A DNA stretch of 64,000 nt from Solimonas sp. K1W22B-7 (lineage in GTDB: Bacteria; Pseudomonadota; Gammaproteobacteria; Nevskiales; Nevskiaceae), in contig NZ_CP031704.1 of NCBI RefSeq assembly GCF_003428335.1, positions 1,612,001-1,676,000 of the forward strand, written 5' to 3'. This document shows, in pieces, positions 16,836 through 62,450 of this stretch. The notes under the pieces are model-generated. The model saw only the letters and a program-made list of their open reading frames with translations, ran no database searches and was not told the origin of the DNA. The stretch's first letter is position 1. Every line of letters begins with the position of its first letter. A program made the position numbers and the translations under genes.

Positions 16836-18083
16836 TCAGGCCGCCGCTACCGGCTGGGCTGCCGGCTGCGGCGCGGCCCCCAGGCTGAGGAGCGCGATCG
16901 CGCTCACCGTCAGCAGGCCTGTGATCAGCAGCAGGAAAGGCGTGTAGCTGCCGGAGTTGTCGAAGATGATGCCGGCCGTGAGCGGCCCGAAGGACGTGCC
17001 CAGGGACAAGGCCATCACCATGGCGCCGTAGAGGCCGCCGAAGTTCTTAAGGCCGAAATGCCGGGCTGCGAGATAGGCGATGACGTCGACCTCCGCGCCC
17101 ACGGTCAGGCCGAAGCAGGCGGCGGCCATGGCCTGGCTCAGCGGGTTGCTGCCGCTGCCCAGCAGCAGGGCGCAACCGACGATCGGCAGCATGAAGGCGA
17201 TCGCGCCGACCTTGTGCGCCGCGAAACGGTCCAGCAGCAGGCCGGTGCCGAGCCGACCGACGATCGAGAACACCCCGATCAGGGAGGCGATGCCGGCGGC
17301 CGCCATCGGCGTCGCGCCGCGGTCGGTGAGGATCGGCACGAAGTGCACCAGTCCGCCGATGGTGGTGAAGGAGAACAGGCCGGCCGCGAGCAGCAGCTTG
17401 TACAGCTTCGGCGAGCGCAGGCCTTCTGCGAGGCTCATGCCGGTCGATGCCCTGGCCGCCACTGGCGCGGCCAGCGCCGCGCCGCGCGGGTCGCGGGCAC
17501 CGCGGAAGAACAGGAACAGGGCAGGGAAGACGATGGCGATCCAGATGCCGCCCTGCGCGGCGAAGGCATTGCGCCAGCCGTAGGCCCCGATCAGCCAGGT
17601 TGCGAGGACCGGGAACAGCGCCGCGCTGAGCGAGGCCCCCGACAGCGTGATCGCCAGCGCCAGGCCGCGCGATTTCTCGAAGCGGCTGTTGACGGCACTG
17701 GTCCAGACCGTGGCCTGCACCCACAGGGTGCCGAGCGCGATGGCCACCCACAGCAGGGCCCAGTTCAGCATGCTGCCGGTAGCGGTGCCGAGCAGGGCAT
17801 AGCTGCCGGTCATCAGGAGCACGCCGACCAGGCCGATGCGGCGCGGGCCGATGCGGTCCACCAGCATGCCCACCGGGATGCAGAACACCGCGCTGACGAA
17901 GCTGGCGATGGTGAGTCCGAGCGCGATCTGCCCGCGCGACCAGCCGAACTCCGCATGCAGCGGTGCGATGAACGGGCCGATCGAGTAGACATGGATGACG
18001 GACGTCGCGTAGCCGAGCGCGGCCACGAACGGCAGATACCAGTAGCCCCGCCATTCCGACGCAGTTCCGTTATGGATGTTCAT
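16836..18083 (-). CDS. Major facilitator superfamily transporter (MCT/OFA-like)
   Basis: 415 residues, about 12 hydrophobic segments, with the loop 2-3 signature as GMLVDRIGPRR near residue 72. The helix pattern, the first-helix YSIGPFIAPL element and the central loop near residue 205 are like monocarboxylate/oxalate-formate-type MFS carriers. It probably imports the organic acid catabolised by the operon, or exports a product. It sits in the middle of the operon, 31 bases upstream of the BVMO gene and 36 after the TauD-like gene. Confidence 0.85.
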   Translation of the reverse strand: MNIHNGTASEWRGYWYLPFVAALGYATSVIHVYSIGPFIAPLHAEFGWSRGQIALGLTIASFVSAVFCIPVGMLVDRIGPRRIGLVGVLLMTGSYALLGTATGSMLNWALLWVAIALGTLWVQATVWTSAVNSRFEKSRGLALAITLSGASLSAALFPVLATWLIGAYGWRNAFAAQGGIWIAIVFPALFLFFRGARDPRGAALAAPVAARASTGMSLAEGLRSPKLYKLLLAAGLFSFTTIGGLVHFVPILTDRGATPMAAAGIASLIGVFSIVGRLGTGLLLDRFAAHKVGAIAFMLPIVGCALLLGSGSNPLSQAMAAACFGLTVGAEVDVIAYLAARHFGLKNFGGLYGAMVMALSLGTSFGPLTAGIIFDNSGSYTPFLLLITGLLTVSAIALLSLGAAPQPAAQPVAAA

Positions 18084-21235: not shown

Positions 21236-21547
21236 GAATGCCTTCAACCGACTTCGTGGGATCTGCGCGCAGCTTTCCGGACCCGATCGGAAGCCGCCCC
21301 TAAATTCTCCGCAGACCTTATCCCGGCGAGACGCTACTAGTCAACAACGCTGTACAATTCCACTCGAGGGAAACCCTGCGGGATGCAGTTTTCAGGCTGC
21401 GGCACAACGGCGCCGCGGAAGAGAATCGCCCGCCCGAAACCAGGCCTGCGGGAGCGGGGCGGGCAAAGGCAAAAAAACCCGATCGCCACCGGTATGGCAG
21501 GCCGATTGGCCATATCATTGGCGCACCCGGTCATATTCCGACGAGCC
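21236..21547. promoter_or_regulatory. Divergent promoter region between SDR and iclR-type gene
   Basis: 312 bases with no supported gene; the upstream in-frame extension of the regulator has no family features. It must hold the promoters of both divergent units. A direct repeat ATTGGC occurs at 21505-21510 and 21517-21522, 12 bases apart. I found no long perfect palindrome, so the IclR operator is not assigned. Confidence 0.45.
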
Positions 21548-22366
21548 ATGGCGGCAAAGCCCAAGAATTCAAACGCAAAAAGTGCCCATGCCGTGGCGCT
21601 GGACACTGCATTGGAACGCAGCACGGTGCCGGCGGTATCCCGCGCTGCAGCAATTCTCCGGCTGCTCGGCCGCTCCTCCGAACAGGTCGGCGTGCAGTTC
21701 ATCGCGCGCTCCCTGAACATCGTGCCCAGCACCTGCCTGCATATCCTGCGGACCCTGGTGGCGGAGGAGTTCGTCAGTTTCGACCCCGTCACCAAGCTCT
21801 ACTCGCTCAACGCCGGGGTGCTGACGCTGGCGCGCCAGTGGCTGGGCCAGAACCGCTTCTCCGATATCGTGCAGCCGGCACTGGACCGCATCACCCGGGA
21901 CTACGGCGTCACGGCCATCGGTGTCCAGGTCGTCGGCCTGGAGCACATGATCGTCGTCGCCATGGCGCGCTCGGAAACCATGATCCAGCTCCACACGCAG
22001 ATCGGCAGCCGCTTCCCGGCGACGATCAGCGCGAGCGGCCGCTGCATCGCCGCCTTCGGCGAGTACGACCGCGATGAATTGCGTCGCCGGTTCAAGGGTT
22101 TGAGGTGGGCCAACGCGCCCTCGCTGTCCGAATGGGAGGCGCAGGTGGCCGAAACCCGCGTCAACGGCTACGCCATCGACCAGGGCAACTACATGGCCGG
22201 TGTCACTGTGGCGGCGGCACCGGTCTTCGGCGTGGGCGGTCAGCTGGCCCACTGCCTGGTGGTGGTGGGTATCAGCGAGCAACTGCAGGACCAGACCCTG
22301 GCCAGGATCGGCCGCGACCTGCGCGAGAGCGCAGCGAAGGTTTCGCGGCAGCTCGGTTCGGCCTAG
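21548..22366 (+). CDS. IclR-family transcriptional regulator
   Basis: 272 residues. A winged helix-turn-helix (VSRAAAILRLLG, then IARSLNIVPSTCLHILRTL) is followed by an IclR effector-binding domain with the typical TISASGRCIAAFG and late GVTVAAAPVFG segments. ATG 21548 is preferred over an upstream in-frame ATG at 21383 because the domain begins about 25 residues after it and the extra 55 residues are not family-like. Divergent from the catabolic block at 4178-21235, it is the most likely local regulator of that block. It converges with the COX4-like gene, only 2 bases apart. Confidence 0.85.
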   Translation: MAAKPKNSNAKSAHAVALDTALERSTVPAVSRAAAILRLLGRSSEQVGVQFIARSLNIVPSTCLHILRTLVAEEFVSFDPVTKLYSLNAGVLTLARQWLGQNRFSDIVQPALDRITRDYGVTAIGVQVVGLEHMIVVAMARSETMIQLHTQIGSRFPATISASGRCIAAFGEYDRDELRRRFKGLRWANAPSLSEWEAQVAETRVNGYAIDQGNYMAGVTVAAAPVFGVGGQLAHCLVVVGISEQLQDQTLARIGRDLRESAAKVSRQLGSA

Positions 22367-22368
22367 GC

Positions 22369-22662
22369 CTAGAACGGAACCCGCGAGCCGAGGAAATAGA
22401 GGCCCAGCAGTACGACCAGCAGCGCCGCCAGCCAGGTGTCGGCGATGCGCCGCATGCGGCGGGGCGCATGCCGGAGTTCCATGAACTCCCAGGCGATCAC
22501 CCGCACCTTGAGTGCCGCGATCAGCAGCACCCCGAAGGTAATTCCGGCATCGAGCGAAAACGCATGCCGCCCGTCGCCGGCGCCGAGCCACCAGGACAGC
22601 AGGGTGACGCCGCTGAGCGCCAAGCATACGGCTGTCATCCTGGTGTCGGTCGTCGTGCTCAT
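22369..22662 (-). CDS. Cytochrome c oxidase subunit IV-like small membrane protein
   Basis: 97 residues with three predicted transmembrane segments (about 10-26, 38-58 and 75-92) and the conserved KVRVIAWEFMELRHAP loop of the prokaryotic COX4/NorF group. Such proteins accompany heme-copper oxidase or NO reductase subunits. It starts 3 bases after the stop of the COX3-like gene, so the two are coupled. No catalytic subunit I or II lies in the window. Confidence 0.75.
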   Translation of the reverse strand: MSTTTDTRMTAVCLALSGVTLLSWWLGAGDGRHAFSLDAGITFGVLLIAALKVRVIAWEFMELRHAPRRMRRIADTWLAALLVVLLGLYFLGSRVPF

Positions 22663-22665
22663 GGC

Positions 22666-23268
22666 TCACCTCATGACGTACAGCAGCGCGAAGATGATCA
22701 CCCACAGAAAGTCGACCATGTGCCAGTAGATGGCCCCGGCTTCGATGACCGTCCGCGAGCGCCGCAGCGGGCTGTGGATCTGGTAGGCCACGACCCCGAG
22801 GAAGATGAAGCCCATGAGGACGTGGAGGATGTGGATGCCGGTCAGGAAGTAGTAGAAGGTGAAGAACGGGTTCGTGGAGAACTCGAAACCTTCCCGGATC
22901 TTCATGGACCATTCGAGCAGCTTCGAGCCCACGAACAGCAGGCCGCAGGAGAGGGTCATGAAGACCTGCCGCTGCGCGGCGGCATACTGGTTTTCGCGCG
23001 TCGACTGGACGGCCCGCGCGATGAGCCAGGAGCTGACCAGCAGGATCACGGTGTTCACCACCCCGAAGTTCTGGCTCAGCTGCTGCTGCGATTGCAGGAA
23101 GATCTCGGGATTCCAGCTCCGGTACAGCATGTAGACGATGAAGTAGCTGCTGAAGACCAGCACTTCGAAGCCCACGAAGAGCCAGATGTCCAGCTCTCCG
23201 GGAATGGATTTTCCCGCTTCGCTGTCTTCGCTGGCAGGGACAGCCACGGCGGCTGAGGCGTTGGCCAT
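22666..23268 (-). CDS. Cytochrome c oxidase subunit III family protein (NorE-like)
   Basis: 200 residues with five hydrophobic segments, shorter than seven-helix COX3 and like NorE. Recognisable elements are GELDIWLFVGFEVLVF, FFTFYYFLTGIHILHVLMG (second half), and the terminal HMVDFLWVIIFALLY. Subunit III-like proteins stabilise heme-copper oxidases. Here it follows two paralogous membrane proteins of unknown function and a TonB receptor on the same strand, with the COX4-like gene next, but without an oxidase core. Confidence 0.8.
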   Translation of the reverse strand: MANASAAVAVPASEDSEAGKSIPGELDIWLFVGFEVLVFSSYFIVYMLYRSWNPEIFLQSQQQLSQNFGVVNTVILLVSSWLIARAVQSTRENQYAAAQRQVFMTLSCGLLFVGSKLLEWSMKIREGFEFSTNPFFTFYYFLTGIHILHVLMGFIFLGVVAYQIHSPLRRSRTVIEAGAIYWHMVDFLWVIIFALLYVMR

Positions 23269-23280
23269 GGGCGGTTCCTT

Positions 23281-24087
23281 CTATGCGCGCGCGGCGGATG
23301 CGGCAGGCAGGTCGGGCAGGGGCCCTTCGCCCAGGTCGTCCCGCAGGATCATGCGTCGCAACAGGGTGATGAACGCCGCGGTGTACGCCACGAACACCAG
23401 CGTATCGACCCAGAAGGTGATGACGCCGTTCCAGGAGAACGGGCCTTCGCGGAAGATCCACACCGGGGCCACCACGACCTCGGTCAGCAGGTTGCAGATG
23501 TTCATGTAGCCGAACCAGCGGGGGAACACGCGGTTCCTGTCCAGCAGGATGGCGAGCATCCATACCGCCGTGCCGACCAGGAACACGCCCATGGTGCCGA
23601 CGAAGGTCATGAAGGCGGCGTCGTAGAGCCAGCTGAGTATTGCCGGGTCGCGGTCCGGGCGCATCGCGCCCACCGTCAGGAAGATGGCGGCGAGCAGCAT
23701 GCCCGGCAGCGTGCTGAGGGAGTAGATCGCGATGTACGCATGGGCGAACACGGGGCTGACGGACATGCGCCGCATGGAGTAGCCGATCAGCGCATTGCAG
23801 GACGCGACCATGCCGGAGATCAGGAAGATGATGCCGAATCCCCAGAGGATGCCGTCGTGGTTGTCGCCGAACCATTGGGCGATCCGGGCGTGATCCCACC
23901 AGGGCTTCGGCGGCGGCATGACCTTCGTCATCAGGCAGAAGACCACGCCGAACAGCTGGTAGAAGCAGAACATCGCCCACCACATGATCCACAGCTCGAT
24001 CTTGGGATCGTGGTGCCAGTGCCAGGCCACCCGGCCCCAGGTGCCGCCGGGGCGGGGCGGTGCAAGCCCGCTTGCCACCGCGCTCAT
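23281..24087 (-). CDS. Multi-pass membrane protein of unknown function (paralogue of the next gene upstream)
   Basis: 268 residues with about six or seven hydrophobic helices. I do not recognise a characterised family. Residues 143-148 read RPDRDP and 182-184 LDR. The gene at 24084-24797 has RPERDP and LDR at the same 39-residue spacing, followed in both by a conserved Trp and a GPxxWxGxxxFWV element, so the two are duplicates. The N-terminal half carries several His/Trp residues (WHWHHD near 22). The start ATG overlaps the stop of that paralogue (ATGA). An electron-transfer or oxidase-partner role is only a guess from the adjacent COX3/COX4-like genes. Confidence 0.65.
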   Translation of the reverse strand: MSAVASGLAPPRPGGTWGRVAWHWHHDPKIELWIMWWAMFCFYQLFGVVFCLMTKVMPPPKPWWDHARIAQWFGDNHDGILWGFGIIFLISGMVASCNALIGYSMRRMSVSPVFAHAYIAIYSLSTLPGMLLAAIFLTVGAMRPDRDPAILSWLYDAAFMTFVGTMGVFLVGTAVWMLAILLDRNRVFPRWFGYMNICNLLTEVVVAPVWIFREGPFSWNGVITFWVDTLVFVAYTAAFITLLRRMILRDDLGEGPLPDLPAASAARA

Positions 24088-24797
24088 GCCGCAGCCACCG
24101 CTTCGTTGCGCTGGCGATGGATGTTCTTGCCGATCACTACCGTCATGACCACCAGCCACAGGGCGATGGCGCCGTTGCGCACCCAAAAGGACAGCAGGCC
24201 GTCCCAGGCCAATGGCCCGGTCAGGGTGGTGGCGACGAAGGCGGCCGGGGCGATGGCGGTCGCGATGGCCAGGTTGAAGTGCGCGACCCACTTCTGGAAG
24301 ATCGGCCGGGGCTGGCGGTCGAGGAAGATCGCCAGGGCCAGGAACACGCATTGGCCCACCATGAAGCCGACCTGCCCGGTGAACGAGATCCAGGCCAGGT
24401 CGTTGAACAGCAGCGTCAGCTGGGGATCGCGTTCCGGGCGGAATGCAGCCAGCAGCCAGAACAGGTCGGCCAGGAAGAACAGGACCGGGCCGCCCGTGGA
24501 GCAGCCCAGGTAGCAGTACGCGAGGATCGGCGTGCGATGTGCCATCCGCTGCATCTGCATCATGATCAGCGACAGGAAGGCCACGATGCCGACGCCGAAC
24601 CAGTTGAACACGATCAGGCTGTAGCGGATCAGCGGCTGGTTCTGCGGATCGCGGTAGAACGCCGCGACCTCTTCCGCCGACATCGTCGGCGACATCGGCG
24701 GAGAGAATCCCGGGAAGAAAAGGAACACCAGGATCCAGCTCAGGGCCAGTGCGGGCAGCGCCCAGAACAGGATGATTTCGCCATCGACTCTACGCAT
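24084..24797 (-). CDS. Multi-pass membrane protein of unknown function (paralogue of its downstream neighbour)
   Basis: 237 residues with about six hydrophobic segments; RPERDP is at 120-125 and LDR at 159-161, as in the neighbouring gene. ATG 24797 has GGAG 7 bases upstream. A GTG at 24818 overlapping the TonB receptor stop is an alternative that adds 7 residues. A short periplasmic or cytoplasmic loop after the first helix (about 30-55) resembles no domain I know. Tight coupling to its paralogue suggests a heterodimer. Confidence 0.65.
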   Translation of the reverse strand: MRRVDGEIILFWALPALALSWILVFLFFPGFSPPMSPTMSAEEVAAFYRDPQNQPLIRYSLIVFNWFGVGIVAFLSLIMMQMQRMAHRTPILAYCYLGCSTGGPVLFFLADLFWLLAAFRPERDPQLTLLFNDLAWISFTGQVGFMVGQCVFLALAIFLDRQPRPIFQKWVAHFNLAIATAIAPAAFVATTLTGPLAWDGLLSFWVRNGAIALWLVVMTVVIGKNIHRQRNEAVAAA

Positions 24798-24814
24798 TGC
24801 CTTGTCTCCGGTAT

Positions 24815-27469
24815 TCACCAGTCATAGCTCAGGTTGAGGCCGATGACCCGGGGTTCGGAGTAGATCGAGCTCTGGAAGTAGGTCAGGTTCCACTGGTTGC
24901 TGTTGGAGATGCGGTACAGCTCGTTGGTGAGGTTGGTGCCGAACAGCTGGGCACTGAGGGCCGTGCCGAAGACGCGGCTCCAGCTCAGGCTGGCATTCCA
25001 CAGGCCGACCGCCGGCAGGTAGGCGCCGGGTTCGGCCTCGGGCGGAGACGACTGTCCGCTGTATTTGCGCGAGGTGTAGGCATAGGTCATGGAAGCCTCG
25101 ACCTCGCCGATCTCCGGGTCCAGCGGCAACAGGTAGCGTCCGGACAGGCTGAACTGCTGCTTCGGGATGTCCTGGAAGGGGATGCAGCTGAAGTCGACGG
25201 TGCCGCCGCTGGAGATTTCCTGTCCGGTACAGTCGAGCTGCGGCGTCGCCCCGTTGTAACCGAAGCTGAACTCCTCGTACTCCGCTTCCGTGTAGCCGTA
25301 GGTGCCCAGGAAGGTGAAGCCGGGGAAGGGCTGGATCGTCAGGTCCATCTCGAAACCGGCGACCCAGGCGCTGCCGACGTTGAAGATCGCCTGGCCCAGC
25401 TGTGGCACCGGGCTGGGATTGCCGGGATCGACAAAGGCGTCGATTCCGGCCTTCTGCAGACCCGTGTAGTCGGTGTAGTAGACCGCCGCGTTGAGGCGGA
25501 CCGGCATGTCGCCGATCTCGAAGTCGGCTTTCTGGCCCAGTTCGTAGTTGGTGACGTATTCCGGCTTGAAGGTGTAGTGATCCGGATTCACGGCGATGGG
25601 GGCGACGCCGCCGGTCTTGTAACCGCGGCTGACCTTGCCGTAGACCAGCTGGGTGCCGAACTTGTAGTCCAGCCCCGCGGTATAGGTCCACTCGGTGTTC
25701 TCGACCTCGGCATCGAATGCCTTGTCGACCAGGGGCACCAGCCCCAGGGCCAGCTGGCTGATCGAGGCGCTGACCTGGGTCTTGTCGGTGGTGCGCCGCG
25801 CGCCCACGGTCAGGTTGAGCCCGGACAGCGATTCGGCGAGTCCGCCGAGATCGTAGGTCCCCTGGGCGAAGGGGGCGAAGGAGGTCTTGCGCTGGTCGTA
25901 CTGCTGGTCCACGTCGACGAAAATCAGTGACTTGGCGACGATGCGGCCGGAGGCATCGGTCGATTCGTAGTAGCCGCCGACCACGAAGTCCAGCTTGTCG
26001 TCGAAGGCCTTGCCCTGCAGCTGCAGTTCCTCCGTCGTGGTCGTCACGTCGGCCTGGGGGATGTTGTCCGGGTTGATGAACTCGTTGAGCGCGGCGCGCG
26101 AACCGTCGAGGTCCCAGCGGTAGGAGTGCTTCAGCGTGGCGTGGCTGGCGATGTTGACCAGCGTCAGTTGGTCGTTGAGTTCGAAGCTGAACTTGTCGAC
26201 CAGCGCGCCGGTTTCGAGGCTGTCGTGAGGATCGCCGCTGAGCTGGACGTGGCGCACGTCGCGCGCGGCCTGTTCATCGACGATGTCCTGCCCGCAGTTG
26301 CTCGAGGGCCCGAAGAAGTTCAGCGCCAGGCAGCCCAGGTTCGCCACCTGGGTGATGTCCAGGCCCGGGATGATCGTGGCCAGCACGCCGAGCCCGACCG
26401 CTCCTGGGATCGCCCGGTTGAGACCCTGCCGGTTGATCCTTTCGATCACGGTGGCGGTGCCGTTGTCGTCGCTGTCGGCGTAGTACCCCATCAGGTAGTT
26501 GTCGATGCGCTCGGTCGGACGCCACAGCAGGCCCAGGCGCGCCGTCCAGTAGTTCTTGTTGTCGTAGTCCTTGCCGGTGACGACGTCCTGGGTGAAGCCA
26601 TCGCGCTGGTAGACCTGTCCACCGACGCGGGCGAGCAGCTTGTCCTCGATGATCGGTGTATTGAGCACCATCTCGTAGGAGTGGCCCATTAGATTGCCGT
26701 CGCCCGCCAGCGACATGACGCCCGCCCGCAACGAGGCCGAGAACTCGTCCTGGGGCTTCTGCGGTTCCAGCAGCAGGGCGCCGCCGGTGGTGTTGCGGCC
26801 GAACAGCGTGCCCTGTGAGCCCTTGAGGATCTGGACGTTGGACAGGTCGAAGAACTTGCCGGCGCCGCCCTGGTAGGAGGCCACCGGATCGGCGGGCAGG
26901 GGCACCTCGCCCAGGTAGACCACGACACCTGCGCTGGCCCCGAACTGCGCGCCCTGTCCGCGAATGGTGGGCGTCTCGGTATTGCGCATCTGGCTGCCGG
27001 AGCCGACCAGCAGTGAGGGCACGCGGCCCTGCAGGTCCTGCGGGCTGTTGATCTGGTCGCGGCGCAGGTCGTCGGCGCTCATCGCCGAGATCGCGATCGG
27101 CACGTCCTGCTGGCTCTCCGCGGTACGCCGGGCGGTGACGACGATTTCTTCCAGCACCGGGCGCGAGGGCGCGCGTTTCGCTGCCGCGGGGGGTGCCGGT
27201 TCCTGCGGCGCGGCGGGAACGGGGATGACCTCGGAGTAGGGCTGGGCGGCGGCCTGCGGCTTCACGTCGCCACTCCCGGGCGCATCGGCGGCCGCCACGG
27301 GTTCCAGCAGCAGTGCGTCGAGTTCGTCCGCGGCCAATGCGCCGGCTGCCGGAGCGGCGGGTTCCTGCGGCTTCTGCGCGCTCGCGGGCAGCGGCAACAT
27401 CAGGGCCGGACACAGGACGAAGGGCATCGCTCCGGCCAGCATGCCTGTCTTCGTGCTGCGTCTGCTCAC
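24815..27469 (-). CDS. TonB-dependent outer-membrane receptor
   Basis: About 884 residues. A signal peptide ending ASAQ is followed by an unusual Ala/Pro-rich stretch of about 75 residues and then the plug domain, starting at VLEEIVVTARR with DVPIAIS. The plug has the QGTLFGRNTTGG motif and the protein ends in an NLSYDW-type beta strand. It belongs to the large iron-complex/sterol-type receptor group seen in polycyclic degraders, so the ligand may be an organic substrate. GTG 27469 has AGGGGGAG just upstream; a TTG 24 bases further is also possible. First gene of the leftward unit containing the membrane pair and the COX3/COX4-like genes. Confidence 0.88.
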   Translation of the reverse strand: MSRRSTKTGMLAGAMPFVLCPALMLPLPASAQKPQEPAAPAAGALAADELDALLLEPVAAADAPGSGDVKPQAAAQPYSEVIPVPAAPQEPAPPAAAKRAPSRPVLEEIVVTARRTAESQQDVPIAISAMSADDLRRDQINSPQDLQGRVPSLLVGSGSQMRNTETPTIRGQGAQFGASAGVVVYLGEVPLPADPVASYQGGAGKFFDLSNVQILKGSQGTLFGRNTTGGALLLEPQKPQDEFSASLRAGVMSLAGDGNLMGHSYEMVLNTPIIEDKLLARVGGQVYQRDGFTQDVVTGKDYDNKNYWTARLGLLWRPTERIDNYLMGYYADSDDNGTATVIERINRQGLNRAIPGAVGLGVLATIIPGLDITQVANLGCLALNFFGPSSNCGQDIVDEQAARDVRHVQLSGDPHDSLETGALVDKFSFELNDQLTLVNIASHATLKHSYRWDLDGSRAALNEFINPDNIPQADVTTTTEELQLQGKAFDDKLDFVVGGYYESTDASGRIVAKSLIFVDVDQQYDQRKTSFAPFAQGTYDLGGLAESLSGLNLTVGARRTTDKTQVSASISQLALGLVPLVDKAFDAEVENTEWTYTAGLDYKFGTQLVYGKVSRGYKTGGVAPIAVNPDHYTFKPEYVTNYELGQKADFEIGDMPVRLNAAVYYTDYTGLQKAGIDAFVDPGNPSPVPQLGQAIFNVGSAWVAGFEMDLTIQPFPGFTFLGTYGYTEAEYEEFSFGYNGATPQLDCTGQEISSGGTVDFSCIPFQDIPKQQFSLSGRYLLPLDPEIGEVEASMTYAYTSRKYSGQSSPPEAEPGAYLPAVGLWNASLSWSRVFGTALSAQLFGTNLTNELYRISNSNQWNLTYFQSSIYSEPRVIGLNLSYDW

Positions 27470-27617
27470 GGTCTCCCCCTTCTGTCGAAGCAACGGCTCC
27501 GGGCCGGCTTTCGCATTGGTTTCGACAAGCTAGTTCGGGGGGCTGCGGCCGTCTACGCTGGCATCCGGCCCGCGCGTTGAAATCGGGACATCGTGAGGCC
27601 GGAGTGGGGAATCCCGG

Positions 27618-31925: not shown

Positions 31926-33749
31926 CTAATTTCTTCGCCTTAGCCGCCCATCTGGCGTGAAGGTTCTCTCGACGGCACGCCGCTCTTCAAGCATCAGTTC
32001 GCGATGTCGAGCGAAATTGTGGCGCAGATCCGCTGGCAGTTCCTCAGTGAGTCGAGCGTCAATCTCGCGAATGCTAGCCGTTAGTTCACGATGAAGATGG
32101 GGGGGTGAATTGACCCGATTACGCTGCACGCGGCAGAACGGAAGGCCAATGAGTAGATAAGGTCGGCGAGTGCCGTCTCCGTACACCGCGTGCTGCGCAC
32201 GCCAGAGGGCGTGACTTAACGGTTGGCCCAACTCGCGATCCAGTAGATGTCCAGCGACTTCTTGGGCTTCCGGGTCGGTGACGGGGAACATCGTGCCGAT
32301 ATAGGCTCGTGCGCCGGCGTACACGAATAGGCCACTCATCTGGTGCCAAGACGAGCAGGCGTTCACCACTACCAGAGGTGATGCCCCAGGCGCGAGGGCA
32401 TGTATGGCCGGGAACCACACGTGGTCATGCAGCTTGATCGCCATTGCATTTCGAACCCGCGGAAGACGAATAGATTCGACTCGAGCGGCCCTACGCTGAT
32501 CGACATCAAGTCGATGGAAGGCGTGAAGAGCACTCCCCACCGGAAGTTCGGCTAGAGCGGCTTTATCGGACCATGACACACCGTCCAACTCCTGATAATT
32601 GAAAAAAAACTTGACCGGAATATCCTCTTGATGCGGATCGACTCCGATAGAGACTGCTTGCTCAACAATGAGACGGCGTTCCCGACCCTCATCATCGACA
32701 TAGACGTAAGTGTCACGTGAGCCAGGAGCATCGCCCGCATGGCTTGAAAATACGACGAGGTCCCACGGTACCGCTTGCAGTAGCAGATCGACCCGATGAA
32801 CCGATGCTCCCGGGCCTTCCAGCACACGCGTAAGTGTGCGGTTACGACTTAGGGCGTCAGCGATCACCGTGATTTCGGATCCGACAACTTGGCCCGGTTG
32901 AACCAACAGTGCGGTGCGCGCGCTGAGATCGGCGTTCTGAGTCGCCCAAAGAGACTGGACGATAGTGCGCCCGAGGTCGGGATAAGCAAATAGATGGGAA
33001 CTAGGACGCTCTGGTATCCCAATTCCGTAGGGAAAACGATGTGTAACGAATAGAACCTCTGTGAATCGATCCGCCCTTACCTCCGCGGGCAATAACGCAC
33101 GTACACGAGCTGATAGATCTTCAAAACGCGCTGCTCCGGCTCCACCCCCAACTTGATACAGGGCCTCAATCAGCTCGTCGGCTTCTACATCAGGAAGTGG
33201 ATCAAACACGACCAGGCTGCCACCGATGGCATGGGTGAGATTGCTAGCGATGATCTGACTCATCTCGTTGCCTGATTCGCAGGCGATGAGTACGTGTTGC
33301 CCGGCTTCAACAAAATTTATGTTGGATGGATCGACCGTAGGATCCACTCGCAGCATGGCGCCGGTCTGACGCGCCAGCATCAAGCCGATACCAAGATTGC
33401 GCTCGCCCCACGCGAATTCTGTGTCGCGAGCGCGCACAACGCCCAGGAGGGCCAACTTGGCCTCATCTCTGGTGCTGATGCGCGAGACCAACGTCGCTGG
33501 TATGTGCTGGGACAGGGCTTCCGCGGCGGCGTCCGTGAGATCGGTAAAGAGCACCTTTCGAGGTTGGACGTGTGCAACTAAGTTACTTCGGCGTGTCACT
33601 TCATTCGTCCAGTCGATCCGGGCCATCCGAGGCCCATCGCTGACCGATAGGTAACGACGCTCCCGTCTAAAGAGCGACGAAACCTCTGCGATTAGATGCG
33701 TGTTGTCGCCGATTAAAACGACAGGCTCAAAGTCAGGTATTTGAATCAT
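31926..33749 (-). CDS. CHAT-domain (caspase/separase-like) cysteine protease
   Basis: 607 residues. The C-terminal half has the CHAT pattern: a catalytic His337 in VVFSSHAGD and a catalytic Cys465 in VVNACSSW, followed by GARAYIGTMFPVTD and a final SHALWRAQH helix. The N-terminal 300 residues are alpha/beta in character, have no motif I recognise, and may be a sensor or binding domain. CHAT proteases are often effectors in bacterial immunity or cell-death systems. The gene is clearly AT-richer than its surroundings (for example 26 G/C of 60 at 32581-32640), suggesting acquisition by transfer. No partner gene is evident beside it, so a defence role is inference. Confidence 0.75.
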   Translation of the reverse strand: MIQIPDFEPVVLIGDNTHLIAEVSSLFRRERRYLSVSDGPRMARIDWTNEVTRRSNLVAHVQPRKVLFTDLTDAAAEALSQHIPATLVSRISTRDEAKLALLGVVRARDTEFAWGERNLGIGLMLARQTGAMLRVDPTVDPSNINFVEAGQHVLIACESGNEMSQIIASNLTHAIGGSLVVFDPLPDVEADELIEALYQVGGGAGAARFEDLSARVRALLPAEVRADRFTEVLFVTHRFPYGIGIPERPSSHLFAYPDLGRTIVQSLWATQNADLSARTALLVQPGQVVGSEITVIADALSRNRTLTRVLEGPGASVHRVDLLLQAVPWDLVVFSSHAGDAPGSRDTYVYVDDEGRERRLIVEQAVSIGVDPHQEDIPVKFFFNYQELDGVSWSDKAALAELPVGSALHAFHRLDVDQRRAARVESIRLPRVRNAMAIKLHDHVWFPAIHALAPGASPLVVVNACSSWHQMSGLFVYAGARAYIGTMFPVTDPEAQEVAGHLLDRELGQPLSHALWRAQHAVYGDGTRRPYLLIGLPFCRVQRNRVNSPPHLHRELTASIREIDARLTEELPADLRHNFARHRELMLEERRAVERTFTPDGRLRRRN

Positions 33750-55426: not shown

Positions 55427-56590
55427 ATGAGCCATCTTTCCCTGAACTTCGCCCTCGGCGACGACATCGACCAGCTGCGCGACGCGGTGCAGGAGTTCGC
55501 CCGGCGCGAAGTGGCCCCGCTGGCCGAGAAGGCCGACCGCGACAACGCCTTCCCCAACCAACTCTGGCCCAAGCTGGGCGAGCTGGGCATCCTCGGCCTG
55601 ACGGTGGAGGAGGAGTACGGCGGCACCAACCTGGGCTACCTGGCGCATGTCGTCGCGATGGAGGAAATCTCCCGCGCCTGCTCGGCCATCGGCCTGTCCT
55701 ACGGCGCGCACTCCAACCTCTGCGTCAACCAGCTGCGCAAGAACGGCAGCGAGGCGCAGAAGCACAAGTACCTGCCCAAGCTGATCTCCGGCCAGCACAT
55801 CGGTGCGCTGGCCATGTCCGAGCCGGGTGCCGGTTCCGACGTGGTCAGCATGAAGCTGCGCGCCGAGAAGAAGGGCGATCGCTACGTCCTCAACGGCAAC
55901 AAGATGTGGATCACCAACGGTCCGGACGCCGACACGCTGATCGTCTACGCCAAGACCGACCCGGCGGCGAAGTCGCGCGGCATCACCGCCTTCATCATCG
56001 AGAAGGGCTTCAAGGGCTTCTCCACCGCACAGAAGCTGGACAAGCTGGGCATGCGTGGCTCCAACACCTGCGAACTGGTGTTCCAGGACTGCGAAGTGCC
56101 GGAGGAGAACGTGCTGGGCAGCGAGGGCCGCGGCGCCGCGGTGCTGATGTCGGGCCTGGACTACGAGCGCATCGTGCTGTCGGGCGGCCCGCTGGGCATC
56201 ATGGCGGCCTGCATGGACGTGGTGCAGCCCTATGTGCGCGACCGCAAGCAGTTCGGCCAGGCCATCGGCGAGTTCCAGCTGATGCAGGGCAAGCTCGCCG
56301 ACATGTACGTGGGTCTCAACGTCTGCCGCGCCTACGTCTACGCCGTGGCCCGCTCGGCCGACCGTGGCGAGACCACGCGCAAGGACGCGGCCGGCGCGAT
56401 CCTGTACTCCGCCGAGAAGGCCACCTGGATGGCCGGGCAGGCGATCCAGGCCCTGGGCGGCAACGGCTACATCAACGAATTTCCCACCGGCCGCCTGTGG
56501 CGCGACGCCAAGCTCTACGAGATCGGTGCCGGCACCTCGGAGATCCGCCGCATGCTGATCGGCCGCGAACTGTTCGTGGGCGGGCGCTGA
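55427..56590 (+). CDS. liuA: Isovaleryl-CoA dehydrogenase
   Basis: 387 residues, the normal length. The acyl-CoA dehydrogenase motifs are present (MSEPGAGSD near 130, GNKMWITNG near 157), and the catalytic glutamate is Glu247 in [12 protein letters not shown]. That is the distinctive position of isovaleryl-CoA dehydrogenases rather than the usual Glu late in the chain. It oxidises isovaleryl-CoA to 3-methylcrotonyl-CoA with FAD, passing electrons to ETF. First gene of the liuA-B-D-E/CoA-transferase operon. Confidence 0.93.
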
Positions 56591-56591
56591 C

Positions 56592-58202
<1,611 letters not shown>

Positions 58203-58215
58203 TCGCCCGGATGCC

Positions 58216-60207
58216 ATGACCATGTTCACGAAAATACTGATCGCAAACCGCGGCGAGATCGCCTGCCGCGTCATCGCCACCTGCCGCCGCCTGGGCATCC
58301 GCACCGTCGCGGTGTATTCCGAGGCCGATGCCGGCGCGCGCCATGTGCGCCTGGCCGACGAGGCGTACTGCGTGGGCCCCGCTGCCTCGCGCGAGAGCTA
58401 CCTGCGCGCCGAGCGCATCGTCGAGGTCGCACGCCGGAGCGGCGCCCAGGCGGTGCATCCGGGCTATGGCTTCCTGTCCGAGAACGAGGGCTTCGCCGAG
58501 GCCTGCGCCGCGGCCGGTATCGCCTTCATCGGCCCACCGGTGACGGCGATCCGCGCCATGGGCTCCAAGTCCGCCGCCAAGGCGCTGATGGAGAAGGCTG
58601 CGGTGCCGCTGGTGCCGGGCTACCACGGCGACGAGCAGGCACCGGCCTTCCTGCGCACGCAGGCCGACCGCATCGGCTACCCGGTGCTGATCAAGGCCTC
58701 GGCCGGCGGTGGCGGCAAGGGCATGCGCGTGGTCGAGAGCAGCGAGGCCTTCGAGGCCGCGCTGGCCTCCTGCCAGCGCGAGGCCCGCGCCAGCTTCGGC
58801 GACGACCGCGTGCTGGTGGAGAAGTACCTGCAGCGTCCGCGTCACATCGAGATCCAGGTGTTCGGCGACAGCCAGGGCAACATCGTCAGCCTCCACGAGC
58901 GCGACTGCTCGGCGCAGCGCCGCCACCAGAAGGTGGTGGAGGAAGCGCCGGCACCGCACATGACCGCAGAGCGTCGTGCCGCCATGGGCAAGGCCGCCTG
59001 CGATGCCGCGCGCGCGGTGGGCTATGTCGGCGCCGGTACCGTGGAGTTCATCGCCGATACCGGCGGCGAGTTCTACTTCATGGAAATGAACACGCGCCTG
59101 CAGGTCGAGCACCCGGTGACCGAGATGATCACCGGCCTGGACCTGGTGGAATGGCAGCTGCGCGTTGCCAGCGGCGAGCCGCTGCCGCTGCGCCAGGAGC
59201 AGGTGCCGCTGCGCGGGCATTCGATCGAGGTGCGCGTCTACGCCGAGGAGCCGGAGAAGGGCTTCCTGCCCTCGATCGGCCGGCTGGCGCATTTCGCGCC
59301 GCCGCAGGCCTCCGCCCATGTCCGTGTCGACAGCGGCGTGGAGCAGGGTGACGAGATCAGCCCGCACTACGACCCGATGATCGCCAAGCTGATCGTCTGG
59401 GACGAGAGCCGCGAGCGCGCCACCGAGCGCATGCTGCGCGCGCTGGCGGAGTTCCGCATCGCCGGCGTCGGCAACAACATCGCTTTCCTGTCGCGCCTGG
59501 TCGGCCACGCGGAGTTCCGCGCCGGCCAGGTCGATACCGGCCTGATCGAGCGCGAGCGGGAGACGCTGCTGGCGTCCGCCGCCGCGGCCCCGGTCACGGC
59601 GTTCGAGGCTGCGGCGCTGTGGCGCCTGCGCAGCGAGCAGGCCGAGGCGCGGGCACGGGGTGCGGCGACGCTGGACCCGCAGTCTCCCTGGGCCCAGGGA
59701 GACGGCTGGCGCCTCAACAGCACGCAGTCGCGTTCGCTGCGCTTCCGCCAGGGCGAACAGGAGACCGCCGTGGCCGTGGGCTATGCCGGTGGCGGCTTCA
59801 CCGTCGGCGGCGCCGCGGCGACGCTGGCGGGCGAGGGCGATGCCCTGTCCTGGGCGCTGGGCGAGCACCGCGCCGAAGCCCATGTCGTGGCGCTCGGCGA
59901 AGACCTGCACGTATTCCAGGGTGGCCTGCGCCATCTGCTCCAGGTGGTCGATCCGCTGGCGCATGCCGGCGAGGAACAGGAGGCCCACGGTGGCCTGACC
60001 GCGCCGATGCCGGGCAAGATCGTCGCCCTGCTGGTGGAAACGGGCGCCGTGGTGGAGAAGGGCGCGCCGCTGCTGGTGATGGAGGCGATGAAGATGGAGC
60101 ACACGCTCTGTGCGCCGGCACGCGGCACCGTGAAGGCCTTCCTCTGCACGGCCGGGGAGCAGGTCAAGGACGGCGTCGAACTGGTCGATTTCGAGGCGGC
60201 GGCATGA
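58216..60207 (+). CDS. liuD: Methylcrotonoyl-CoA carboxylase, biotin-carrying (alpha) subunit
   Basis: 663 residues. The biotin carboxylase domain comes first ([23 protein letters not shown], ENxxLQVEHP-type segment [13 protein letters not shown]). It is followed by a linker and a C-terminal biotinyl domain with the biotin lysine Lys626 in EAMKMEH. It carboxylates 3-methylcrotonyl-CoA together with LiuB. Start ATG 58216 (ATG 58222 also possible). The stop overlaps the liuE start (ATGA). liuC is absent between B and D, unlike the common order. Confidence 0.93.
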
Positions 60208-61121
60208 GTCCGCTGCCGCGGCAGGTCAAGCTCGTCGAGGTCGGCGCGCGTGACGGCCTGCAGAACGAGCCCGGCGTGGTGGCCACTGCCACCAAACTCG
60301 CGCTGATCGGCAAGCTGGCCGATGCCGGCCTGCGCTACATCGAGGCCACTGCCTTCGTGTCGCCCAAGTGGGTGCCGCAGATGGCGGACCAGGACACGGT
60401 GATGCGCGGCGCGCCGCGCCGCGAGGGCCTGCGCTACTCGGCGCTGACACCGAACCTCAAGGGTTTCGAGGCGGCGCTGGCGGCCGGCGCGCAGGAGGTG
60501 GCCGTGTTCGGCGCCGCTTCCGAGGCTTTTTCGCAGAAGAACATCAACTGTTCGATCACCGAGAGCCTGCGCCGCTTCGAGGATGTGATGGTGGCGGCGC
60601 GCGCGGCCAACATTCCGGTCCGCGCCTACGTGTCCTGTGCTCTCGGCTGCCCCTACCAGGGCGAGGTTTCACCGGAGCAGGTCGCGGATGTCGCCGGGCG
60701 GATCTACGACATGGGCTGCTACGAGATTTCGCTGGGTGACACGGTCGGTGTCGGCACGGCGGGAAAGACGCAGGCGATGATCGAGGCGGTGGCGCGGCGC
60801 GTGCCGCTGCAGCACCTCGCCGGGCATTTCCATGACACCTACGGCCAGGCCCTGGCCAATGTCTATGCCGCGCTGCAATGCGGTGTGGCGGTATTCGACA
60901 GCTCGGTTGCCGGGCTCGGCGGCTGCCCCTATGCGGCGGGTGCCTCGGGTAATGTCGCCAGTGAAGACCTGGTGTACCTGCTGCAGGGCCTGGGCATCGA
61001 AACCGGCGTCGATCTTGCGGCCCTGGCGGCAGCGGGTGATTTCATTTCGGGTGAACTCGGCCGGCCGACGCGCTCGCGCGTGGCGACGGCCATGGCAGGC
61101 AGGAAGGAGAAACAGGCATGA
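60204..61121 (+). CDS. liuE: Hydroxymethylglutaryl-CoA lyase
   Basis: 305 residues. [12 protein letters not shown] at the start contains the metal/substrate Arg-Asp of the family, [11 protein letters not shown] and GHFHDTYGQ carry the metal-binding His residues, and the catalytic Cys is in GLGGCPYA. It splits HMG-CoA to acetyl-CoA and acetoacetate, the last step of leucine degradation. It overlaps liuD by 4 bases and the CoA-transferase subunit A by 4 bases. Confidence 0.95.
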
Positions 61122-61816
61122 ACAAGCTATACCCCAGCGCCGCGGAGGCGCTCGCGGGACTGGTCAAGGACGGCATGACGCTGGCGGTGGGCGGCTTCGG
61201 CCTCTGCGGCATCCCGGAGGCCCTGATCGACGCCTTGCGCGACAGCGGTGCGCGCGAGCTGACGGTCATTTCCAACAATGCCGGCGTCGACGATTTCGGC
61301 CTCGGCAAGCTGCTGACCACGCGCCAGGTGCGCAAGATGATCTCGTCCTATGTCGGCGAGAACAAGGAATTCGAGCGCCAGTACCTCGCCGGCGAGCTGG
61401 AGCTGGAGTTCACGCCGCAGGGCACGCTGGCGGAGAAGCTGCGCGCCGGCGGCGCCGGCATCCCGGCGTTCTACACCCGCACCGGCTACGGCACCCTGGT
61501 GGCCGAGGGCAAGGAAACCCGCCAGTTCGACGGCCACTGGTACGTGATGGAGAAGAGCCTGCGTGCCGACATCTCGCTGGTGAAGGCCTGGAAGGCCGAC
61601 ACCGCCGGCAACCTGGTGTTCCGCAAGACGGCGCGCAACTTCAACCCGATGTGCGCGACCGCCAGCCGCATGTGCATCGCCGAGGTGGAGCAGATCGTCG
61701 AAGTCGGCGAACTGGACCCGGACCAGGTCCATACGCCGGGGATCTACGTCAAGCGCATGGTGCTCAACGCCACGCCCGAGAAGCGCATCGAGAAACGCAC
61801 CGTGAGGCAGAACTGA
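61118..61816 (+). CDS. 3-oxoacid CoA-transferase subunit A
   Basis: 232 residues, the alpha subunit of a two-gene SCOT/AtoDA-type CoA-transferase: [17 protein letters not shown] near residue 22, [22 protein letters not shown] (in part) and [13 protein letters not shown]. With subunit B it moves CoA from succinyl-CoA or another acyl-CoA to acetoacetate, so that the product of HMG-CoA lyase can be thiolysed. The ATGA overlap with liuE shows it is part of the leucine operon. Confidence 0.92.
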
Positions 61817-61817
61817 C

Positions 61818-62450
61818 ATGGCCTGGACACAGGAAGAGATGGCGCGCCGCGCGGCGCTGGAACTGCGCGACGGTTTCTACGTGAACCTCGGCATCGGCCT
61901 GCCGACGCTGGTGGCGAATCACATTCCCGAGGGCATGGACGTCTGGCTGCAGAGCGAGAACGGCTTGCTGGGCATCGGTCCGTTTCCGACGGACGCCCAG
62001 GTCGACCCCGACCTGATCAACGCCGGCAAGCAGACCGTCACCGATCTGCCGGGCAGCGCCTATTTCAGCAGCGCGGACTCCTTCGCGATGATCCGCGGCG
62101 GCCATATCGACCTGTCGATCCTCGGTGCCATGCAGGTGTCTGAGCAGGGCGACCTGGCCAACTGGATGATCCCCGGCAAGATGGTCAAGGGCATGGGCGG
62201 CGCCATGGACCTGGTGGCCGGTGTCGAGCGCGTGGTGATCCTGATGGAGCACACCGCAAAAGGCGATGCGAAGAAGATTCTCGAGCGCTGCGACCTGCCG
62301 CTGACCGGCGTCGGCGTGGTGGACCGCATCATCACCGACCTGGGCGTGATCGACGTGACGCCGGAAGGACTGCGCGTGCGCGAGCTGGCGCCCGGCGTGA
62401 CGATGGACGAGTTGCGCGCCAGGACCGGCTGCAAGCTGCTGGACGCCTGA
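61818..62450 (+). CDS. 3-oxoacid CoA-transferase subunit B
   Basis: 210 residues, beta subunit with the catalytic Glu47 in [10 protein letters not shown] and the conserved [14 protein letters not shown] and GGAMDLVAG segments. One base separates it from subunit A. Last gene of the operon; it converges with the regulator whose 3' end is at 62471, and I see no clear hairpin in the 20-base gap. Confidence 0.92.

What the first reader, a model, noticed from the sequence alone, without database searches (positions are those of the whole stretch)
22369..27469. TonB receptor linked to a duplicated unknown membrane pair and orphan COX3/COX4-like proteins
Two adjacent membrane proteins share RPxRDP and LDR at an identical 39-residue spacing and are coupled by ATGA, so they are diverged duplicates likely forming a heterodimer. 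They lie with subunit III- and IV-like proteins but without the catalytic heme-copper subunits. This could be an uncharacterised membrane complex linking substrate uptake or oxidation to respiration.
Basis: partly seen in the sequence, partly recalled or inferred. Interest (0 to 1): 0.6.

Follow-up and report, generated by a model that had tools for sequence, protein, structure and literature searches.

The report
Undescribed membrane module with NorE-like subunits
Two sister membrane proteins of an unnamed family were found together with two relatives of nitric-oxide-reductase helper proteins in bacteria that carry genes for breaking down aromatic or steroid-like compounds, which points to an undescribed membrane complex whose job is still unknown.

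Summary
Proteins A (24084-24818) and B (23281-24087) are homologous (29% identity, E 3e-19), overlap by ATGA, and carry RPxRDP...LDR 39 residues apart. With COX3-like and COX4-like genes and a TonB receptor upstream they form a tight gene row.

In all 80 loci kept by a scan of bacterial species genomes (53 Mycobacteriaceae; 39 distinct after a redundancy cut), A, B, COX3-like and COX4-like follow one another on one strand. A and B are sister clades. Single relatives also sit near COX3/COX4-like genes (37 of 59 in the order).

One part of the interpretation changes. The COX3-like protein groups with NorE of nitric oxide reductase loci, not with this genome's oxidase subunits III. The genome has two oxidases elsewhere and no NorB was found. 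A/B lack conserved His or Cys, so a haem-carrying respiratory link is not supported.

Best reading: an inner-membrane complex handling hydrophobic substrates (uptake or delivery) for catabolic clusters, with NorE/NorF-type accessory subunits. The module is well supported; the mechanism is inferred (about 0.35).

The parts
24815..27493 (-). TonB-dependent receptor (start may be the GTG at 27469), first gene of the row
   Evidence: Plug domain 44.2 bits; homologues of 61-83% identity directly upstream of A in 7 relatives of the order
24084..24818 (-). A: membrane protein of an unnamed family, six membrane helices by my count on the model (protein P0002)
   Evidence: no Pfam or NCBIfam match at E<=1
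23281..24087 (-). B: diverged sister of A (protein P0001), start overlaps the A stop (ATGA)
22666..23268 (-). COX3-superfamily protein of NorE type
   Evidence: Pfam COX3 54.6 bits; groups with NorE; Lys116 shared with NorE
22369..22662 (-). COX4_pro-family protein, placed like NorF next to the NorE-type gene
   Evidence: Pfam COX4_pro 51.4 bits
21383..22366 (+). IclR-family regulator, convergent with the row; a possible regulator of the cluster (inferred)
   Evidence: IclR_C 72.8 bits, HTH_IclR 30.7 bits on 21428-22366; homologues within the fetched stretches of L038 and L044

Best explanation
Shown: A, B and NorE-type and NorF-like proteins form a conserved four-gene module, found in several phyla, in or beside clusters with genes for catabolism of aromatic, steroid-like or other hydrophobic compounds. 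Inferred: the four proteins form one inner-membrane complex. A and B pair as the substrate-handling core; the NorE-type protein, by analogy with subunit III of oxidases, packs against the core and offers a lipid-lined side entrance for a membrane-soluble substrate; the COX4-like protein stabilises it. In the window the TonB receptor would bring a hydrophobic substrate over the outer membrane and the A/B complex would pass it over or out of the inner membrane to the cytosolic catabolic enzymes. The complex carries no haem or metal centre of its own. Confidence: module as a functional unit about 0.9; uptake or delivery mechanism about 0.35.
For: 80 of 80 kept genome-contig loci have A, B, COX3-like and COX4-like in order on one strand within 2.3-2.7 kb; A and B overlap by ATGA or GTGA in 79 of 80, and pairwise distances correlate (A-B r 0.97, A-COX3 0.95). 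A and B are sister clades, joint support 99/91. Window A is 47-65% identical to A of the Mycobacteriaceae loci. Paired modules lie near three unrelated kinds of envelope importer: TonB receptors (8 of 9 pair loci of the order; also Sphingobium L096 and Novosphingobium L095), a FadL/TodX-type porin (L141), and Mce-type genes (20 of 80). No gene outside the four was found constant: the largest neighbour cluster, a TetR, is in 39 of 80 loci (lower bounds, as the simple gene caller misses genes). No His or Cys column of A/B reaches 50%; the conserved residues are Arg/Asp/Trp/Gly/Pro. The A model has pLDDT 92.6, pTM 0.87. A TonB receptor deletion slows growth on estradiol in another bacterium (PMC7793797, passages).
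Against: No substrate or transport activity is shown. Single family members are near a TonB receptor in only 7 of 37 (with COX3/4) and 4 of 22 (without), only modestly above what 23 receptor genes in 5.37 Mb would give. 52 of 80 paired loci show no such importer gene in the fetched stretch. Foldseek gives no PDB match at E<=0.001, so no transporter fold was recognised. The window already has an MFS transporter at 16836-18083.
Confidence: 0.35

Rival explanations
1. A quinone-linked electron-transfer complex: A/B form a haem-free heterodimer like the membrane anchors of some fumarate reductases, taking electrons from a soluble flavoprotein dehydrogenase of the cluster to the quinone pool.
For: Duplicated membrane pair with conserved Arg, Asp and Trp; a flavoprotein cluster whose representative matches FAD_binding_2 in 26 of 80 loci; acyl-CoA dehydrogenases among neighbours of the order's loci (7 of 109 proteins scanned); relation of COX3/COX4 to respiratory proteins.
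Against: No soluble redox partner was found constant across loci; no conserved His/Cys column; six long helices rather than the shorter anchors of known examples (comparison recalled).
Confidence: 0.2
2. An assembly or stabilising factor for a membrane-associated enzyme of the catabolic pathway, as has been supposed for NorE/NorF and nitric oxide reductase (recalled).
For: NorE-type relationship; [quoted passage not shown]
Against: No client enzyme was found constant among neighbours; NorE/NorF are reported to have no effect on heterologous NOR expression (PMC9976466, passage).
Confidence: 0.2
3. Oxygen supply to the oxygenases of the cluster through a COX3-like gas path.
For: Rieske and TauD genes in the window; P450 cluster in 30 of 80 loci; subunit III is discussed as an O2 path (recalled).
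Against: In Azoarcus KH32C a family member with COX3/COX4-like genes lies beside 2-hydroxyacyl-CoA dehydratase/activase and ferredoxin genes, by my knowledge an oxygen-independent kind of pathway; the P450 cluster is absent from 50 of the 80 loci as called here, though other oxygenases were not all counted.
Confidence: 0.07
4. The COX3/COX4-like genes serve one of the genome's oxidases and neighbour A/B by accident.
For: They pass Pfam's COX3 and COX4_pro cut-offs.
Against: Both oxidases carry their own subunit III; linkage to A/B in 80 of 80 loci; NorE-type placement.
Confidence: 0.02

Closest known systems
NorE/NorF of cytochrome c nitric oxide reductase loci
   Same: Window COX3-like protein and the module COX3s in the tree fall with NorE on one side of a split (97/91) that puts this genome's CtaE and CyoC on the other; same Lys116; nearly the same NCBIfam profile as Thioclava NorE; same NorE-NorF gene order.
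   Different: No NorC, NorB, NorQ or NorD beside it in the window; the genome's only COX1-family matches are CtaD- and CyoB-like; partner is the A/B family instead.
Cytochrome c / quinol oxidase subunits III and IV
   Same: Pfam COX3 and COX4_pro matches; shared Glu119, His146, His149 and the WHxxD stretch.
   Different: Gln or Glu, not Lys, at position 116 in the oxidase proteins compared (2 of this genome, 5 solved chains); no catalytic subunits; every NCBIfam oxidase model matched is below its cut-off.
Steroid/aromatic uptake by TonB receptors (EdcT) or Mce systems
   Same: The module lies near such importers in 28 of 80 loci.
   Different: A/B match no Pfam model of an importer component.

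Membership tests
Heme-copper oxidase | catalytic subunit I in or linked to the gene row | tested here: not met
   Two COX1-family matches in the genome, at 593 kb and 5140 kb; the window module is at about 1635 kb
Heme-copper oxidase | module COX3-like protein groups with oxidase subunit III | tested here: not met
   Split of 58 rows including NorE against own CtaE and CyoC, 97/91; only two oxidase rows, both long-branched, so weigh
Nitric oxide reductase (NOR) | NorB in the genome | tested here: not met
   Only two COX1-family matches; best NCBIfam hits CtaD (668.1, just under its cut-off 670.75) and CyoB (1143.1, over 1020.35)
NorE-type COX3 superfamily | Pfam COX3 above cut-off and grouping with NorE of nor loci | tested here: met
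   54.6 bits over 23.8; tree; Lys116 in 52 of 52 rows outside nor loci and 6 of 6 NorE rows (the 52 include Azospirillum L208, which has no annotated A/B-like neighbour in view)
NorF / COX4_pro | Pfam COX4_pro above cut-off, gene next to NorE-type | tested here: met
   51.4 over 28.9; NorF identity itself was not tested by a tree
Known Pfam/NCBIfam family for A and B | a curated model matches | tested here: not met
   None at E<=1 for A or B; of 28 family members no Pfam model matches more than one (best DUF4386, E 0.012)
Microbial rhodopsin or GPCR-like bundle | shared fold | tested here: inconclusive
   VIA Z 11.2 (Ste2, rmsd 4.7, 205 aligned), then about 8-9; the tool warns this is common for helical bundles
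TonB-dependent receptor | Plug domain above cut-off | tested here: met
   44.2 over 23.9 bits

The most novel reading that the evidence does not exclude
A/B plus NorE/NorF-type subunits are a new class of inner-membrane machine that completes uptake of steroids and other hydrophobic compounds behind TonB receptors in Gram-negatives and Mce systems in mycobacteria, and NorE/NorF in denitrifiers are one specialised offshoot of this wider family of adaptors for membrane-soluble substrates.
Probability: 0.25. Interest if true: 0.82.

Novelty: new variant of a known kind. Interest (0 to 1): 0.6.

Why it matters
[quoted passage not shown] Here their relatives occur repeatedly outside nitric oxide reductase loci, tied to an unnamed membrane family in bacteria with aromatic and steroid-like catabolic genes, including many mycobacteria. 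That gives a new handle on what this subunit type does. If the uptake reading holds, it would also offer a candidate for an inner-membrane step of steroid and aromatic uptake that I recall as largely unidentified in Gram-negatives.

Tried and rejected
Mycofactocin link: suggested by plasmid neighbours (MftR in N. pentaromativorans, mft genes in Streptomyces NBC_00080); rejected for this lineage because 0 of 85 genomes of the order pass the mycofactocin radical-SAM cut-off.

Haem or metal site in A/B: no His or Cys column reaches 50%. The single-sequence model of B (pLDDT 53) was too poor and was not used. Foldseek found nothing at E<=0.001; that is no proof of a new fold. PDB sequence searches with B alone and with the A+B profile found nothing, and the wider family profile one weak match at E 0.5. 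Oxygen-supply reading: weakened by Azoarcus KH32C. Importer link for single members: weak. Spread beyond the order: 1 of 120 sampled Pseudomonadota genomes (the own one) has the family at E<=1e-10, so it is patchy; a matching survey of Actinomycetota could not be set up.

Literature: searches listed no paper that I recognised as describing this module; of these papers I saw listings, and passages of six. The library is open-access only, so absence there is weak evidence.

Full report
What is there. Five minus-strand genes lie in a tight row in the window: a TonB-dependent receptor (24815-27493, perhaps starting at 27469), A (24084-24818), B (23281-24087), a COX3-like gene (22666-23268) and a COX4-like gene (22369-22662). 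Receptor and A overlap by GTGA, A and B by ATGA; the remaining gaps are 12 and 3 nt (read). A and B are homologous: BLASTP 29% identity over 201 residues, E 3e-19. The shared RPxRDP and LDR motifs lie 39 residues apart in both. The window lies in one 5.37 Mb contig in which a search with B finds no other family member. Its nearest named relative found is Solimonas fluminis (A 86% identical).

Known families. COX3, COX4_pro and the TonB plug pass Pfam's cut-offs; A and B match nothing in Pfam or NCBIfam at E<=1. Of 28 diverse family members, no Pfam model matches more than one. PDB sequence searches with B alone and with the A+B profile give nothing; the wider A2 profile gives one weak match to an 82-residue chain at E 0.5.

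The module. A scan of one genome per species with a six-sequence A profile found 230 relatives and kept the best 80. By the titles, 53 of these 80 are Mycobacteriaceae; the others are Solimonas, Stenotrophobium, Sinimarinibacterium, Hydrocarboniphaga, Novosphingobium, Sphingobium, Nocardia, Frankia and relatives, Streptomyces, Actinomadura, an acidimicrobiian, a deltaproteobacterium and a few others. All 80 carry A, B, COX3-like and COX4-like genes in that order on one strand, within 2.3 to 2.7 kb (first seen). At an 82% identity cut, 39 distinct A sequences remain. A and B overlap by ATGA (60) or GTGA (19) in 79 of 80. Distances of A, B and COX3 correlate at 0.95-0.97; shared descent of the hosts contributes to this. 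The selection was made on A alone, so linkage to the other three was not selected for, but it is biased towards close A relatives; the other 150 relatives were not seen.

Wider family. In the window's order, 31 of 85 genomes have members, 77 in all. I took the surroundings of all 77 (the window): 55 have a COX3- or COX4-like gene within 3 kb, most with COX3 within about 300 bp or, for A of a pair, about 900 bp. One is counted by COX4 alone, one has COX3 at 2.8 kb, and some neighbours in L049 and L165 share one COX3. The 55 are 18 members in nine pair loci (9 of 9 with COX3 and COX4) and 37 of 59 single members; 22 single members have none. On plasmids, 12 records match A. Of 8 opened, 6 have COX3 directly after the family member, 1 has it 2.6 kb away on the other strand, and 1 (Streptomyces NBC_00080) has none in view. 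All 8 family members are annotated hypothetical protein. In a sample of 120 Pseudomonadota genomes only the own genome has the family, so its spread is patchy.

Duplication. In a maximum-likelihood tree of 67 family members, the A sequences of pairs form one clade (100/99) and the B sequences another (100/100), sisters with 99/91. Two members of L165 that my score labelled B-like fall elsewhere. The pair most likely arose by one duplication, and B changed faster. Heterodimer formation is inferred from this co-inheritance, not shown.

The COX3-like protein. A tree of 60 sequences puts module COX3s and NorE of six loci on one side of a split (97/91) and this genome's CtaE and CyoC on the other. 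Of the six, five show a gene annotated cbb3-type subunit I beside NorQ and NorD-type genes, which I read as NorB; one (Thiothrix) shows NorQ/NorD-type genes only. Only two oxidase rows were used and both are long-branched. Lys116 is present in 52 of 52 sequences from outside nor loci and 6 of 6 NorE; oxidase proteins have Gln or Glu there (own two; five solved chains). NCBIfam scores of the window protein and of Thioclava NorE are nearly alike, all far below oxidase cut-offs. Twelve of 450 plasmid records with a COX3 match were opened: 5 have a family member near COX3, 5 are nor loci, Thiothrix has NorQ/NorD-type and hemerythrin genes, and Azospirillum has neither. The genome has two COX1-family genes, assigned to aa3 (CtaD, just under its cut-off) and bo3 (CyoB) oxidases, each with its own subunit III. 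So the window genes are not missing oxidase parts, and no NOR was found for them to serve.

Structure. With 79 sequences AlphaFold2 gives A a confident model (pLDDT 92.6, pTM 0.87), with six membrane helices by my count. Foldseek finds no PDB match at E<=0.001. VIA-align's best is the receptor Ste2 at Z 11.2, then mostly rhodopsins at 8-9, which the tool marks as common for helical bundles. Residues conserved in at least 80% of rows of both alignments include P40, P41, P44, R91, R127, P128, R130, P132, D140, D167, W177, G201, W205, G207; no His or Cys column reaches 50%. By the positive-inside rule (inference) the PP, RPxRDP and GPxAWxG loops face outward.

Surroundings. The window module lies in a region with Rieske, TauD, SDR, MFS and thiamine-diphosphate enzyme genes. 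In the 80 paired loci, neighbour clusters, each named by one representative, include P450 (30), FAD_binding_2 flavoproteins (26), LigB ring-cleavage enzymes (21), CoA ligases (36) and TetR regulators (39); the TetR name rests on reading the sequence. These are lower bounds because the simple gene caller misses genes. No gene outside the four was found constant. Envelope importers: a TonB receptor lies near 8 of 9 pair loci of the order, and the ninth contig ends 752 bp beyond A. In the 80 loci, 20 have Mce-type genes, 7 TonB receptors and 1 a FadL/TodX porin in the fetched stretch, 28 in all. Of the nine loci titled as Gram-negatives, eight have an outer-membrane importer. For single members the link is weak: 7 of 37 with COX3/4 and 4 of 22 without, against 23 receptor genes in 5.37 Mb. 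Precedent: deletion of the TonB receptor EdcT slows growth on estradiol in Novosphingobium tardaugens (PMC7793797, passages).

Mechanism. I think most likely a haem-free inner-membrane complex in which A and B handle a hydrophobic substrate and the NorE-type protein, like oxidase subunit III, packs beside the core. The existence of the module as a unit is supported by linkage and co-inheritance; complex formation, stoichiometry, substrate and transport are inferred. Quinone-linked electron transfer and assembly of a pathway enzyme remain open rivals. Oxygen supply is made unlikely by the Azoarcus locus beside 2-hydroxyacyl-CoA dehydratase-type genes.

Novelty. NorE/NorF are a known kind whose function is called unknown or not well defined in recent papers (PMC13036017, PMC8139620, passages). 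Their partnership with this unnamed membrane family was not found in eight literature searches of an open-access library. I file it as a new variant of a known kind; the A/B core itself has no known relatives here.

Noticed in passing
31926-33749 (-): CHAT-domain protein (32.0 bits over 24) in a stretch of lower G+C (about 0.58 against 0.64-0.69 around it), missed by a codon model trained on the window; perhaps recently acquired.
   Followed up: partly
L049 (G010:C2; another contig of G010 matches a Hydrocarboniphaga MAG record by length): Four members of the A/B family within 20 kb and 13 in the genome.
   Followed up: partly
L177, L180-L185, L187, L190, L194, L198: Single family members have a gene of about 175 aa directly upstream; five were read and look MarR-type, and 12 of 109 scanned neighbours match MarR. 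In mycobacteria a TetR-like gene is often divergent to the module. The module may carry its own regulator.
   Followed up: partly
L161 (Rhodococcus sp. ZPP plasmid): Family member, COX3-like and COX4-like genes lie upstream of, and on the same strand as, two ABC permease genes and Mce/MlaD genes.
   Followed up: no
L208 (Azospirillum brasilense plasmid): NorE/NorF-type pair with neither nor genes nor an annotated A/B-like neighbour in view, beside CoA transferase and acyl-CoA dehydrogenase genes.
   Followed up: no
55427-62450 (+): Carboxyltransferase gene (56592-58202) among what look like acyl-CoA dehydrogenase and CoA-transferase genes; may be a leucine or isovalerate utilisation cluster (recalled, not tested).
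   Followed up: no
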